Below, piece by piece: positions 6,458 through 46,038 of a DNA stretch of 64,000 nt. The first letter of the stretch is position 1. Each line of letters begins with the position of its first letter. Below the pieces are notes generated by a model. The model was not told the DNA's origin, did no database searches, and was given only the letters and a program-made list of their open reading frames with translations. The stretch comes from Methanosarcina horonobensis HB-1 = JCM 15518 (GTDB taxonomy: Archaea; Halobacteriota; Methanosarcinia; Methanosarcinales; Methanosarcinaceae), in NCBI RefSeq assembly GCF_000970285.1, contig NZ_CP009516.1, positions 434,001 to 498,000 on the forward strand. The letters are read 5' to 3'. Position numbers and translations under genes: made by a program.

Positions 6458-7231
6458 TTAAAATCTTAGCATAAAAGCTGTAAGCAATCCCAGAACTAAA
6501 AGAGATATCCAGTCTCTTCTTTGCATTAAAAGCTCATGCATCGAGGTTCTGCGGGTTCCCTGATACCCTCTGTTTTCCATTGCGAGGGAAAGTTCTTCAG
6601 CGTCCCTAATCACACCTCTTATAAGGGGAACGGTAAGGGCAGGAACCGAATTGAAAGGGTTTTTCCCGAAATACATGCCCCTTGAAGCTTGGGCTGCTTT
6701 TGTCCGCTCAACCCTATCAAAGAGAAGGGGAAGAAATGCTATCGAGAGGTTCATCATTGTCGCAAGTTCATGGGAGTTCACACCCAGCCAGCGAAGGGGC
6801 AGCGGGCGCAGCATTCTCTCTATCCCGCATGTGATCGCGGACGGGTCAGTACTGGCTGTCATAAGGGCTGCAAAAAGCAGGAGAAGTATAAACCGTGCAG
6901 AAAGCCTGAACCCGTTCTGAAGCCCTTCCAGGCTTGGGCGCAGGATCCAAAAAGAAGCCAGCACCCGTCCTTCAGTGAAAAACAACTGCGCGAGGAAAAT
7001 GAATATAATAAATAGTACCATGGGCCTAACTGCCCGAAAAAACACATTTGCTGGTAGCCCGGAGAATAAGGTAAGGGCAATAAAAAAGGTGAAGAGAATC
7101 CCTATTCCGAAAAAACTTTCAGTCCTGAAAGTCAGAATGCCCAGCAGCATTACAGCTGCAAGTTTTGTCCTTGGGTCAAGTGTATGCAGAAAGGATATCC
7201 CGGGCACGTAACTGAAAACAGGTTGTTGCAT
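6458..7231 (-). CDS. ecfT: ECF transporter T component (EcfT, CbiQ family)
   Basis: The protein has 257 residues with five or six membrane helices. The two coupling motifs that touch the ATPases are visible as QASRGMYFG near residue 185 and AMENRGYQG near residue 220. The N-terminal FLHTLDPRTKLAAV is the usual family start. It is the last gene of the bioY-ecfA-ecfA-ecfT operon, with GGAAAGAG before the ATG. EcfT links the substrate-binding BioY to the ATPase pair for vitamin uptake. Confidence 0.9.
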   Translation of the reverse strand: MQQPVFSYVPGISFLHTLDPRTKLAAVMLLGILTFRTESFFGIGILFTFFIALTLFSGLPANVFFRAVRPMVLFIIFIFLAQLFFTEGRVLASFWILRPSLEGLQNGFRLSARFILLLLFAALMTASTDPSAITCGIERMLRPLPLRWLGVNSHELATMMNLSIAFLPLLFDRVERTKAAQASRGMYFGKNPFNSVPALTVPLIRGVIRDAEELSLAMENRGYQGTRRTSMHELLMQRRDWISLLVLGLLTAFMLRF

Positions 7232-7289
7232 TCTCTTTCCTTGTCTCCTTACTTCTCACTTTTTACACTTTTTCTACTTTTTATAATTT

Positions 7290-41508: not shown

Positions 41509-42147
41509 ATTTTTCCTCCTACAATCAAATCTCGACTTTTAATCCAATGTCGACTAAGGGTTCCAGTCCGCAAAGAGGGAAACTGCAATAGAAGCGAGAG
41601 GAGCTGCGAATTTCACATGGTGAAGAACCAGTTTACAGTTATAATTTTCTCTATATTTCTTCTCCAGTGGGATTTCTTTCTCCTGTAAGATCCCTTTAAT
41701 GGAGATGTTTTTACTTTTATAACGGCAAAGCTATTTTTTAACGGAATTTTAAAAACCGAAGATTGTCGGCAACTTTCCGTTCTCCTATAACTGCACTTCC
41801 CCCAGATAGATTCAGTAAAAACCCCAATAATTGATTATTTTTATAATATTTAGCAATTTTTATACAATTATTTTTTGGAGAGCATATTTACCCTTCCTGT
41901 TTTTTACTTCATGGACTAATTTCTAAATCATACTCATGGTAGTTTTAAGGTTACTTTGTATGAACTTTGGAAAAAGTAGACTTGTTTTATGTTTTCTTAG
42001 TAAATTTCAACAAATTTTTATATCGCTTTCTAATAAACGGTTAAATTACGTTGGTATCCTTCAGGCCTTGTGTTTGAAAAACTTGCTTTTCATTAAGTTT
42101 TCTCTCAATGTTTTATGATATTGAACCAAAAATGGAGCTAAATTCCT
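41509..42147. other. AT-rich spacer without supported genes
   Basis: The stretch between the YHS gene and the KAP gene is AT-rich with many T runs. An open frame at 41936-42118 has no codon bias, no ribosome site and no recognisable product. No RNA fold was evident. Confidence 0.4.
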
Positions 42148-44814
42148 TTGGCAGGCGATAAGTCTAACTCAACTTCTTGCTACATGCATAGTGACACTGC
42201 AACAGGAAAAGATTCACTCGGATTCAAACCTTATGTCGAGGCTATCGCAGAATTTCTTACCGCTGAGGGAACTTTAGCTCCGATTACTCTTTCTATTGAG
42301 GGGCAATGGGGGTGCGGTAAATCTTCTTTCATGAAGCAACTGAAAGAGGAAATTGAAAAGGGAAATATATGCGATATATCTATTAGAGAATTTTTGAAGT
42401 ATCTATTCTTAAATAAGAAAAAAGCAGGTCTTCCTGAATTAAAATCTCTTATTTCAAAACTAGAAATCCTTTTTTCTTCCATTGAAGAAAAATTCTCACA
42501 AAATAATGGAAATGAGCCAAATAATCAAGATGAAAATTTTGATCTATATTCCTTCGAAAATAAAATAAGAGCAATTCTAATATATATCCCTTTAAAAATT
42601 AATAGAAGAAAGTATTTTACAGTATGGTTCAACTGCTGGAGATATGAGAAAGAAGACGAGTTATGGGCTGCTTTTGCACTTAATTTTATGGAAGAGTTAT
42701 CAAAAAAACTTCCTTGGTACTACAAAATAATTTCACAGTTTAGGTTAATTTGGCGAAGATATTATATTAAATTTAGTTACACGTCCGTTATTCTTATTTA
42801 CCTTTTATTGAGAATAATTTCTTTCATAATTATTTTCTTATTCTTATTCTTAGTAATCAGTTATATCTTGAAATTTTTTGGAATAAGTCCTTCAAATGGT
42901 TTAGGCATACTGTCATTGAGTCCAGAAAATATCGTAGAGTTTTCGGGTATTATTACACTTTTAACTTCTTTTATAATTGTTGTAAACCACTTTTTCAGTA
43001 AAGAACCGTTCACAGATCTCTTTACAGATCCCTTGGGTCTGAAAAAACTTGAGTCAAATACTAATTATAAGGAACGCCTTCCTTTCAGAGAGCATTTTTA
43101 TTCTGACTTTAATGAAATAATTAAATCATATGTAAGAAATTCGAAAGTTTATGTTTTTATTGATGATCTTGACCGTGCCGAAGTTCCAAAGGCAGCGGAG
43201 CTGATGCAAGCAATTAACCTCATGATTTCTGAGGATTCCAAGGTGTATTTTTCAATAGGTATGGATAGAAAAATTATCTCTGCAGGACTTGCGGCTAAAC
43301 ACGAAAAAGTTATCGACTACTTGGGTATCGAAGGACTTGAATATGGTTATGATTTCATTGAAAAATTTATCCAGCTTCCGTTTAAAGTGCCCAGTCCAAA
43401 AAGCGTCGATTTTTTAAAATTTTTAGTATCAGCTAATGAAACCGGTAATTCTTTAGGTATATCCGAGCCTATAAGTGAATACAGTATCTTCGAAGATTTT
43501 ACTTCTGATAAACTTCCTGAAGAAGATATCGGATCCTTCCCGAATGAAAATAGCAGACAAGAAATAGGAACAGATACTTCTAACAATGTTGAAATCAAAT
43601 CTAATTACCCAAAAATCCTGAACGATATGGATTGTATCGAAGATTTTGAAACCTCAAAGATGATTTTGGAAATGGTTTCTCCTGCTTTGGATAATAATCC
43701 TCGTAGAATAAAACAATTCATTAATCAGTTTCGTTTTCAGAGAACTATAGGAAAAAGAACAGGTCTATTTTGTTATGATGAGGATACCAATTTTGAAAAC
43801 ATGTGGAATTGTAGAAAGCTTGCAAAATTCGTGGCAATAAACATAAATTGGAACTCTCTCATTTCTGCTCTGAATTCAAACAAGGCACTTCTTACCCTTT
43901 TACAGGAATATGCATTGAATTCGGAAAATGAAGATAAAAATCTGGAAAAATGGACTCGAGATGAAAGATTGATAAGGTTATTGAGATACGGTTGCATAGA
44001 AGAGGACAATCTTTCGCAAACTGTAGATGATTATACTCTTTCAGGTCTTGATTTTTCTAAGTTGTTGCAAATTTCACCTATAGTCTTATATCTTGAAGAC
44101 GAAAATGTACTTAGCCCCTTGCCTGAAGCTATAGGATTTATGGGATTTTTCTTGATCCCTGAAGGGGAATTCATGATGGGGTCCCCTCAGGATGAATTGG
44201 GTAGATCCTCCGAAGAAGGGCCTGTCCACAAAGTAACGATTAAAAATTCCTTTTACCTTAGTAAATATCCTGTGACTCAGAAGCATTGGAAAAAAGTTAT
44301 GGGGAATAATCCTTCTTCTTTCAAGGGTGATTACCTTCCTGTAGAAAATGTTTCATGGGACGATGTTCAGGAATTCCTCAAAAAACTCAATGAAACTGAA
44401 AGTGTTCATAAGTATCGTCTGCCTTCTGAAGCTGAGTGGGAATACGCCTGTAGGGCTAAAACTATTTCAAGATACTCATTTGGTGATGATGAATCGATGC
44501 TCAGGGATTATGCTTGGTACCGTGGTCAATCTGAAGGTAAAACTCATCCAGTTGCACAGAAAAAACCTAATTCATGGGGTCTTTATGATATGCATGGGGA
44601 TGTCTGGGAATGGGTACAGGACAAGTGGCATGATAACTATAATGGTTCTCCTTCCGATGGTAGCGCTTGGGAAGATGGAGATAGTCCTAAACGTGTAATA
44701 CGGGGAGGTGGATGGCATAACAACGCTAGTTACTGTCGATCGGCGAACCGCTCCGGGGACATCCAAAGCAATCGCGACGCCGATATTGGCTTTCGTCTTC
44801 TGATGGAATTATAA
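42148..44814 (+). CDS. KAP-family P-loop NTPase fused to an FGE/SUMF1 domain
   Basis: The protein has 888 residues. The KAP NTPase has Walker A EGQWGCGKSSF near residues 51-60 and Walker B VYVFIDDLDRAEV near 334-345. Between them two pairs of hydrophobic helices (about 205-285) are inserted, the classic KAP layout anchoring it to the membrane. From about 670 an FGE-sulfatase domain begins (IPEGEFMMGSPQDELG, YPVTQKHWKKVMGNNPSSF, RLPSEAEWEYACRA, WGLYDMHGDVWEWV) and ends RGGGWHNNAS...GFRLLMEL. Start codon TTG with GGAG before it. The fusion suggests a conflict or signalling role; no partner gene is adjacent. Confidence 0.85.
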   Translation: MAGDKSNSTSCYMHSDTATGKDSLGFKPYVEAIAEFLTAEGTLAPITLSIEGQWGCGKSSFMKQLKEEIEKGNICDISIREFLKYLFLNKKKAGLPELKSLISKLEILFSSIEEKFSQNNGNEPNNQDENFDLYSFENKIRAILIYIPLKINRRKYFTVWFNCWRYEKEDELWAAFALNFMEELSKKLPWYYKIISQFRLIWRRYYIKFSYTSVILIYLLLRIISFIIIFLFLFLVISYILKFFGISPSNGLGILSLSPENIVEFSGIITLLTSFIIVVNHFFSKEPFTDLFTDPLGLKKLESNTNYKERLPFREHFYSDFNEIIKSYVRNSKVYVFIDDLDRAEVPKAAELMQAINLMISEDSKVYFSIGMDRKIISAGLAAKHEKVIDYLGIEGLEYGYDFIEKFIQLPFKVPSPKSVDFLKFLVSANETGNSLGISEPISEYSIFEDFTSDKLPEEDIGSFPNENSRQEIGTDTSNNVEIKSNYPKILNDMDCIEDFETSKMILEMVSPALDNNPRRIKQFINQFRFQRTIGKRTGLFCYDEDTNFENMWNCRKLAKFVAININWNSLISALNSNKALLTLLQEYALNSENEDKNLEKWTRDERLIRLLRYGCIEEDNLSQTVDDYTLSGLDFSKLLQISPIVLYLEDENVLSPLPEAIGFMGFFLIPEGEFMMGSPQDELGRSSEEGPVHKVTIKNSFYLSKYPVTQKHWKKVMGNNPSSFKGDYLPVENVSWDDVQEFLKKLNETESVHKYRLPSEAEWEYACRAKTISRYSFGDDESMLRDYAWYRGQSEGKTHPVAQKKPNSWGLYDMHGDVWEWVQDKWHDNYNGSPSDGSAWEDGDSPKRVIRGGGWHNNASYCRSANRSGDIQSNRDADIGFRLLMEL

Positions 44815-45045: not shown

Positions 45046-46038
45046 TCACATCCACTCATAATGCATCAAAACTTCAGGATTGAAGCTCTGCATTAAACTG
45101 TTTTCCGTATACCCAAAAAAGAGGCAGCCTTTGCAATTATTTACAATTTCTTCCCTGCGCTGTGTAGAATCTTTCCAGACCTTCTCAAAGCCGTCCTTCA
45201 TAACGTTCCCAAGAGGCTCTTGATGTACTCGGCAGGTTTCGGCATTGCCGTCGTGAGTTATGTTGATAATAATGCCACTTGCCCGGCATTTGTAATCCAT
45301 TTTCCCGTCCCTGACCATTCCCAGGTAAGTCTTGGAGTTTATTATAGGATAGCCCTGTTCCTTCAGTTCGATTATTCGGTTTACAGTGATGTGGAATTTT
45401 TCCTTATCCCGGATACCTATTTCGCTCCAGATCTCCTGACTGATTCCGGGAAATTCATGTACGGGCTCGAAAGAAACTTTTACATCCAGTTTTTCTGCAA
45501 GTAAAATGAGAGTTTCAATGTCATCCAGGTTTTTTCCTGTGAGTACGCAGTTCATCAGGATTGGGTTTTCCTGTTTCTGGAGTTTCCTTACCTCAATAGC
45601 TTTTCTTAAGCCTTTCAACAGGGTTTCGAAATCCATCCTCCGGATTTCTTTGTAGCTTTTTGTTCCGTCTACTGAAACCGACAGGTAGTCCACGTCCTCA
45701 AGCTCTTCCACTCTTTCGTAAAGCAGCTTTCCGTTCGTGACCATGGATGTAACCATCCCGAGTTCCTTTGCATGAGCCATTATCAGGGGCAGGTCTTTCC
45801 TGAGAAGAGGCTCCGTGGTCCAGGCATTATAAACTCCGATCCCGAATTTCTTTGCATTGTCAAGGAGCCTGAAGACTTCGTCTCTTGGAGGTTCTTTTCC
45901 TGTCTCTTTCCAGTATTCGCAGAATTTGCAGCGCATATTGCAGTTGGCATTTACACCGTGAGAAAGGACAAACGGGCGTTTTTTGATTCTTATTTGCCAG
46001 AGGGCTTTTGAAGCCAGGATGGGGTCAAATCGGGACAT
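45046..46038 (-). CDS. Radical SAM protein
   Basis: The protein has 330 residues. CNMRCKFC at residues 33-40 is the CX3CX2C motif binding the 4Fe-4S cluster. WTTEPLLRKDLPLIMAHAKE and SVSVDGTKSYKEIRRMDFE follow in the barrel. The C-terminal part contains four more Cys (CRASGI, ETCRVHQEPLGNV, CKGCLFFG), a SPASM/twitch-like second cluster site. Such enzymes modify peptides or cofactors; the substrate is not evident. It stands alone. Confidence 0.85.
   Translation of the reverse strand: MSRFDPILASKALWQIRIKKRPFVLSHGVNANCNMRCKFCEYWKETGKEPPRDEVFRLLDNAKKFGIGVYNAWTTEPLLRKDLPLIMAHAKELGMVTSMVTNGKLLYERVEELEDVDYLSVSVDGTKSYKEIRRMDFETLLKGLRKAIEVRKLQKQENPILMNCVLTGKNLDDIETLILLAEKLDVKVSFEPVHEFPGISQEIWSEIGIRDKEKFHITVNRIIELKEQGYPIINSKTYLGMVRDGKMDYKCRASGIIINITHDGNAETCRVHQEPLGNVMKDGFEKVWKDSTQRREEIVNNCKGCLFFGYTENSLMQSFNPEVLMHYEWM

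What the first reader, a model, noticed from the sequence alone, without database searches (positions are those of the whole stretch)
42148..44814. KAP NTPase fused to an FGE/SUMF1 domain: candidate conflict system
KAP NTPases have paired membrane helices and are linked to defence in bacteria. FGE-sulfatase (C-type-lectin-like) domains serve as ligand-binding sensors in several NTPase-based conflict systems and in diversity-generating retroelement targets. A fusion of both, in AT-rich DNA with no housekeeping neighbours, is a plausible membrane-anchored immune sensor.
Basis: partly seen in the sequence, partly recalled or inferred. Interest (0 to 1): 0.7.

Follow-up and report, generated by a model that had tools for sequence, protein, structure and literature searches.

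The report
Orphaned hypervariable immune-type sensor in Methanosarcina
This methane-making archaeon carries a membrane ATPase whose tail is a hypervariable recognition domain once rewritten by a targeted-mutation machine (a diversity-generating retroelement); the machine's fossils and intact forms survive in relatives, so this looks like an archaeal counterpart of an antigen sensor.

Summary
The fusion is real: one 888-aa ORF (42148-44814, +) with a KAP NTPase (aa 26-529), two membrane segments and a C-terminal FGE/C-type-lectin domain (aa 669-885). It is not in a defence island. It is an ancestral Methanosarcina gene at a fixed site beside the L12-L10-L1-L11 ribosomal-protein genes, intact in 6 of 31 sampled species and decayed in others. 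FGE catalysis is unlikely: the first catalytic Cys is an Asn in a hypervariable column. The last ~33 residues are a diversity-generating-retroelement (DGR) variable repeat. Evidence: (i) hypervariable positions interleave with an invariant CRSA-R-GFRL frame; (ii) variable codons follow a template rule (A sites change, non-A sites are kept, third base stays C/T); (iii) a related genus has, at the same chromosomal site, KAP-FGE, caspase-FGE and a template repeat, whose 19 differences from the caspase VR are all at template adenines; (iv) template fossils lie at this site in two Methanosarcina species; (v) two complete DGRs (FGE target-HRDC-Avd-RT-TR) occur in the order. The window's genome has no DGR RT, Avd or template, so this is an orphaned DGR target. 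Most likely role: a membrane-anchored, NTP-gated sensor of invaders. That role is inferred, not shown.

The parts
42148..44814 (+). KAP NTPase-FGE fusion gene, 888 aa, TTG start (GGAG at 42134-42137)
42223..43734 (+). KAP P-loop NTPase domain (aa 26-529)
   Evidence: Pfam PF07693 E 3.5e-28; weak QatA/PifA similarity in PADLOC
42301..42324 (+). Walker A, GQWGCGKS (aa 52-59)
   Evidence: conserved in intact orthologs
42772..43002 (+). two hydrophobic, presumably membrane-spanning segments inserted in the KAP domain (aa ~209-245 and ~261-285)
   Evidence: hydropathy
43147..43176 (+). Walker B, VYVFIDDLDR (aa 334-343)
   Evidence: sequence; conserved
44152..44802 (+). FGE-sulfatase / C-type-lectin domain (aa 669-885)
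   Evidence: Pfam PF03781 E 2e-50; PDB relatives PvdO 5hha and the DGR variable protein TvpA 2y3c
44700..44803 (+). DGR-type variable repeat (VR): hypervariable aa 857-862, 867, 869-879 within invariant RGG..CRSA-R-GFRL; aligns over 104 bp with the template repeat of a related genus

Best explanation
The gene encodes a DGR variable protein now separated from its retroelement. The KAP NTPase is anchored by a two-helix hairpin, with the P-loop core and the C-terminal FGE/C-type-lectin head probably both on the cytoplasmic side. The head's last ~33 residues are a DGR variable repeat that displays a randomised ligand-binding surface. Ligand binding, perhaps a viral or other foreign component, would license ATP-driven assembly or membrane action by KAP, as proposed for bacterial CLec-NTPase conflict proteins. 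SHOWN by sequence: the fusion, the VR anatomy, the adenine-template signature, the template repeat at the syntenic locus of another genus, template fossils in the same genus, complete DGRs in the order, loss of RT/Avd/TR here, and the modular partners (caspase, SEFIR/TIR, phosphorylase) of the same head. INFERRED: topology, ligand binding, effector action and a defence role.
For: (1) Eight syntenic orthologs: mean entropy 0.67 bits in the FGE body against 1.32 in the VR, single columns up to 2.75 of 3.0, interleaved with invariant residues. (2) G115, another genus of the family, has SAM-HAT, HEAT, KAP-FGE (857 aa), caspase-FGE, TR, radical SAM, L12-L10-L1-L11 in the window's order. (3) TR against VR in cis: caspase-FGE 19 differences at A, 0 at non-A of 104 bp (hypergeometric 7e-15); G104 23/0; G116 15/0; G152 14/2; G115 KAP-FGE 9/4. 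(4) Window VR against G115 TR at codon positions 1/2: 12/26 A sites differ, 4/40 non-A (p 0.0012), third base C/T in 10/10 AAC template codons; the MAG ortholog L051 has 16/26 against 0/40. (5) Template fossils at the KAP-FGE site in G025 (L081:8325-8600) and G003 (L072:7253-7386). (6) Complete DGRs, FGE target-HRDC-bAvd-RT (GIPIGNLTSQ, YMDDF)-TR, in G152 and G104. (7) The same FGE head is on caspase, SEFIR/TIR, SEFIR-phosphorylase and DnaJ proteins.
Against: The window's genome has no DGR RT, Avd or TR, so no present diversification is claimed. The window VR carries third-position and some non-A differences from the template, i.e. long drift. Nothing shows ligand binding or defence. The locus is not a defence island and has no recognisable partner gene. 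KAP NTPases also have roles outside defence.
Confidence: 0.76

Rival explanations
1. Ordinary fast-evolving receptor: the C-terminal loop is variable through point mutation, paralog recombination and positive selection, without any DGR.
For: No DGR RT, Avd or TR in the window's genome, and no DGR RT or Avd in any of the 31 Methanosarcina genomes searched; VR third positions have drifted (13/33 against the G115 template).
Against: TR-like non-coding copies with AAC at exactly the variable positions lie at the same locus in G025, G003 and G115; cis TR-VR pairs differ almost only at adenines; variable codons keep C/T third bases.
Confidence: 0.08
2. Working FGE or other metal/thiol enzyme (sulfatase maturation, EgtB/PvdO-like) fused to a KAP ATPase.
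For: The domain scores as FGE-sulfatase and its best PDB relative is PvdO; one catalytic Cys (Cys341 equivalent, C863) is invariant in orthologs.
Against: The other catalytic Cys (Cys336 equivalent) is N858 in a hypervariable column; no sulfatase nearby; the genome's only full-length sulfatase sits beside an anSME-like radical-SAM protein; NCBIfam enzyme models score far below cut-off.
Confidence: 0.03
3. DGR-derived recognition head used for cell-cell, envelope or kin recognition (aggregate formation) rather than defence against mobile elements.
For: Methanosarcina forms multicellular aggregates, and Kaur et al. 2020 (PMC7159879) link related conflict systems to such archaea; DGR targets elsewhere can be surface ligand binders.
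Against: No N-terminal signal-like segment, and the KAP hairpin topology suggests a cytoplasmic head; sister heads are on caspase and SEFIR/TIR domains typical of suicidal immunity.
Confidence: 0.13

Closest known systems
DGR-diversified CLec-NTPase 'antigen sensors' of multicellular bacteria (clade 5/5D DGRs; Dore et al. 2024, PMC10907252)
   Same: Central NTPase plus C-terminal FGE/CLec head bearing the VR; that paper says some clade 5D targets use a KAP NTPase; sister targets carry peptidase or TIR effectors.
   Different: Archaeal (Methanosarcinaceae); here the gene is separated from RT and TR and kept at a fixed chromosomal site beside ribosomal genes; a second target at the G115 locus is a caspase-FGE.
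TvpA, DGR variable protein of Treponema denticola (PDB 2y3c)
   Same: Same FGE/CLec fold and VR position at the C-terminus (phmmer 5.5e-31).
   Different: TvpA has no NTPase; TR and RT are in cis (from memory).
QatA (Qat anti-phage system) and PifA KAP NTPases
   Same: KAP NTPase with weak profile similarity (PADLOC 3e-18 and 7e-15; NCBIfam QatA 1.8e-21).
   Different: Far below the QatA cut-off (76 against 600 bits); no QatB/C/D neighbours; QatA and PifA lack an FGE head (from memory).
RT-less partial DGRs of DUSEL4 Nanoarchaeota (Paul et al. 2015, PMC4372165)
   Same: Target gene and VR without an RT, with adenine-directed variation.
   Different: Those targets had no recognisable homologs; here the target is KAP-FGE in a cultivable genus.
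Metacaspase-FGE fusions and FGS effectors of NTP-dependent conflict systems (PMC3501461; Kaur et al. 2020, PMC7159879)
   Same: The same FGE head on suicide-type effectors, often DGR-linked.
   Different: Different central domain; mostly bacterial.

Membership tests
KAP NTPase family | P-loop KAP domain with Walker A/B and inserted membrane helices | tested here: met
   PF07693 E 3.5e-28; GQWGCGKS and VFIDDLDR; hydrophobic segments 209-245 and 261-285
DGR variable protein | C-terminal VR in a CLec/FGE fold with hypervariable positions in a conserved frame | tested here: met
DGR variable protein | Differences from the template concentrated at template adenines | tested here: met
   orthologous template from G115: 12/26 A against 4/40 non-A, p 0.0012; cis pairs in relatives 19/0, 23/0, 15/0
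Complete DGR (RT + TR + VP, usually Avd) | RT, Avd and TR in the same genome | tested here: not met
   absent from the window's genome; the only RT is CRISPR-adjacent with a QGGIISP motif
Formylglycine-generating enzyme | Two active-site Cys (336/341 human) | tested here: not met
   first Cys = N858, hypervariable; second = C863
Qat anti-phage system | QatA above model cut-off with QatBCD in the operon | tested here: not met
   76 bits against cut-off 600; no such neighbours
Anti-phage / conflict system | Demonstrated protection or toxicity | not testable with these tools
   needs experiment
Anti-phage / conflict system | Location in a defence island | tested here: not met
   conserved housekeeping neighbourhood in the window's genome, nine relatives of the genus and G115

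The most novel reading that the evidence does not exclude
Methanosarcinaceae run a split, trans-acting DGR. RT-less cassettes (KAP-FGE and caspase-FGE targets plus TR with a conserved ~170-nt structured 3' element) stay at fixed chromosomal sites and are re-diversified when a mobile or extrachromosomal RT/Avd arrives. This would explain why single-contig genome G115 has a caspase VR identical to its TR at all 77 non-adenine sites yet no DGR RT or Avd.
Probability: 0.2. Interest if true: 0.8.

Novelty: new variant of a known kind. Interest (0 to 1): 0.64.

Why it matters
What DGR-diversified proteins do in cells is an open question, and most candidates sit in bacteria that are hard to work with. 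This places a DGR-derived sensor family, with KAP, caspase and TIR-like partners, in Methanosarcina, a genus with cultivated, genetically tractable species. It also gives a series of stages: active cis DGR, TR-only loci, template fossils, orphaned target. That makes it testable whether such sensors act against viruses, and what happens to an anticipatory immune receptor once its diversifying machine is lost.

Tried and rejected
FGE catalysis / sulfatase partner: rejected. Defence island or mobile element: rejected by synteny. DGR in the window's own genome: no RT, Avd or TR; the one RT lies beside a CRISPR-like array and has group II-like motifs. A first TR pattern assuming AAY-AAY after CGC gave one hit, later recognised as the fossil in G025. 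Low-complexity A-rich matches were discarded. Viral contigs gave no relative of the RT or the fusion and no TR or TR-flank match. Rfam: no hit near the gene. AlphaFold of the FGE domain from 11 sequences: mean pLDDT 53, second half below 50, so not used. Fold of the TR 3' element: z -1.4 on one sequence, 3 of 42 pairs with compensatory change; suggestive only. A direct own-VR comparison was out of register and was replaced. No paper held describes DGRs or this fusion in Methanosarcina, but most subscription-journal papers are not held.

Full report
OBSERVATION. The window lies in a single-contig 5.02-Mb archaeal genome whose relatives are named Methanosarcina in public records. The ORF 42148-44814 is one intact 888-aa protein with a KAP NTPase domain (aa 26-529, E 3.5e-28) and an FGE-sulfatase domain (aa 669-885, E 2e-50). 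It is the only KAP-family match in the genome. Two other FGE genes exist elsewhere in the genome. Walker A and B are intact and conserved, and two hydrophobic stretches lie inside the KAP domain.

SURROUNDINGS. The neighbours are not a defence island: SAM-hydroxide adenosyltransferase, a HEAT-repeat protein and a 2-hydroxyacid dehydrogenase upstream; a radical-SAM protein and ribosomal proteins L12, L10, L1 and L11 downstream. The same order surrounds the gene in G013, G029, G003, G027, G015 and G028, and surrounds its remains in G019, G014 and G025. The gene is intact in six of the 31 Methanosarcina genomes sampled (G000, G013, G029, G003, G027, G015). It is frame-shifted in G028, split over about 25 kb in G019, and reduced to fragments in G014, G025, G008 and G024. 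It is therefore an old, dispensable, repeatedly lost gene. Where intact it is under purifying selection, for example dN 0.14 and dS 0.56 for KAP against G013.

NOT AN ENZYME OF SULFATASE MATURATION. Against solved FGEs the residue at the first catalytic Cys is N858, in a column reading NFDNDYSY among orthologs; only the second Cys (C863) is kept. The genome's only full-length sulfatase is about 1.5 Mb away, carries CTAGR, and lies beside a protein I read as an anaerobic radical-SAM maturase.

THE C-TERMINUS IS A DGR VARIABLE REPEAT. In eight syntenic orthologs the FGE body has mean entropy 0.67 bits, the last 35 residues 1.32. Near-maximal columns alternate with invariant RGG, CRSA, R and GFRL. 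The variable codons are mostly NNC/NNT, or NGG where the template has AGG. Scanning fetched loci for sequences matching a VR except for A substitutions found a template-like stretch at the KAP-FGE remnant of G025, TGGAACACCAACGCCAGGAACTGCCGGTCAGCTAACCGCAACAAG.... Used as a query over 186 genomes of the order, it recovered template repeats and their 3' flank in other genera, and a second fossil in G003 beside its intact KAP-FGE gene.

THE SYNTENIC TR LOCUS. In G115 (same family, another genus, one 4.2-Mb contig) the same chromosomal site holds SAM-HAT, HEAT, KAP-FGE, caspase-FGE, TR, radical SAM, L12-L10-L1-L11. The TR differs from the caspase VR at 19 of 27 adenines and at none of the 77 other bases, and from the KAP VR at 9 adenines and 4 others. 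G116 (15/0) and G104 (23/0) agree; G152 gives 14/2. Against the G115 template the window's VR differs at 12 of 26 adenines but 4 of 40 non-adenines at codon positions 1 and 2 (p 0.0012), and third bases are C/T in all ten AAC codons; 13 of 33 third positions have drifted. The MAG ortholog L051 differs at 16/26 and 0/40.

COMPLETE DGRS IN THE ORDER. G152 and G104 have FGE target, HRDC protein, bAvd (PF22296 E 2e-19 and 4e-19; PHROG 'Avd protein of DGR'), RT with GIPIGNLTSQ/GVPIGSLTSQ and YMDDF, and TR. Over 186 genomes only these two have this RT (hits elsewhere are at most 32% identical, with QG..SP motifs where read) and only these two have bAvd. The RT is 42-46% identical to DGR-type RTs on Prosthecochloris and cyanobacterial plasmids, so a bacterial-type origin is plausible. 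The window's genome has neither, nor a TR.

MODULAR HEAD. The same VR-bearing FGE head occurs in these archaea on caspases (EACC1-associated type in G115), SEFIR/TIR, SEFIR-phosphorylase and DnaJ proteins. A KAP paralog in G003 carries pentapeptide repeats instead. This is the architecture of effector-plus-sensor conflict proteins.

MECHANISM. Best reading: an ancestral DGR randomised the head; selection kept useful binders. In Methanosarcina the RT, Avd and mostly the TR were lost, in G025 and G003 leaving target fragments joined to the TR 3' flank, as a VR-TR deletion would. The window keeps a frozen but maintained receptor. Ligand binding is proposed to trigger KAP at the membrane. Steps up to 'orphaned DGR target' are shown by sequence; ligand, topology and output are inferred.

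KNOWN OR NEW. Dore et al. 2024 (PMC10907252) report CLec-NTPase DGR targets, some with KAP NTPases, in multicellular bacteria. Paul et al. 2015 (PMC4372165) report RT-less partial DGRs in Nanoarchaeota. Kaur et al. 2020 (PMC7159879) discuss FGS effectors and mention Methanosarcina mazei. I found no description of this locus or of DGR targets in Methanosarcina in the held papers. Hence: new variant of a known kind.

OPEN POINT. G115 shows a VR perfectly matched to its TR outside adenines but no DGR RT or Avd in a single-contig chromosome. Either the RT was lost very recently, or it acts from elsewhere.

Noticed in passing
L188:9160-9335; L081:8427-8602; L189, L190, L191, L194, L195: A conserved ~170-nt non-coding element directly 3' of the DGR template (97% identical between two genera), with a predicted long terminal hairpin; probably part of the template RNA.
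   Followed up: partly
L188 (G115:C1:394000-413000): TR and caspase-FGE VR match perfectly at non-adenines, yet the single-contig genome has no DGR RT or Avd.
   Followed up: partly
L002 / L084 (G000:C1:2391589-2392236): The window genome's only RT (416 aa, QGGIISP) lies beside a CRISPR-like repeat array and a probable CARF-type protein; similar RTs in G012, G013, G029.
   Followed up: no
L077/L078 (G019:C9:395980-423258): KAP-FGE ortholog carries stop codons and is split by ~25 kb of inserted DNA.
   Followed up: no
L081:8748-9935; L072 ~6900-7250: An archaeal AAA ATPase gene (PF01637/AAA_16) adjoins the template fossil in both G025 and G003.
   Followed up: no
L073:2668-5229 (G003): KAP NTPase paralog with C-terminal pentapeptide repeats in place of the FGE head.
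   Followed up: no
window 45046-46038: Radical-SAM neighbour gives a viperin-type PADLOC hit (2.8e-17), but it is conserved at this site in the syntenic genomes and is probably a housekeeping SPASM protein.
   Followed up: partly
NZ_AP026076.1:58683-58762: A cyanobacterial (Acaryochloris) plasmid stretch is 82.5% identical over 80 bp to the archaeal DGR template, ~2 kb from a DGR RT/Avd pair: possible horizontal source.
   Followed up: no
BK063673.1:38327-39307: Caudoviricetes sp. vir525 (host given as Methanosarcinales) carries a reverse transcriptase 36% identical to the G152 DGR RT.
   Followed up: no
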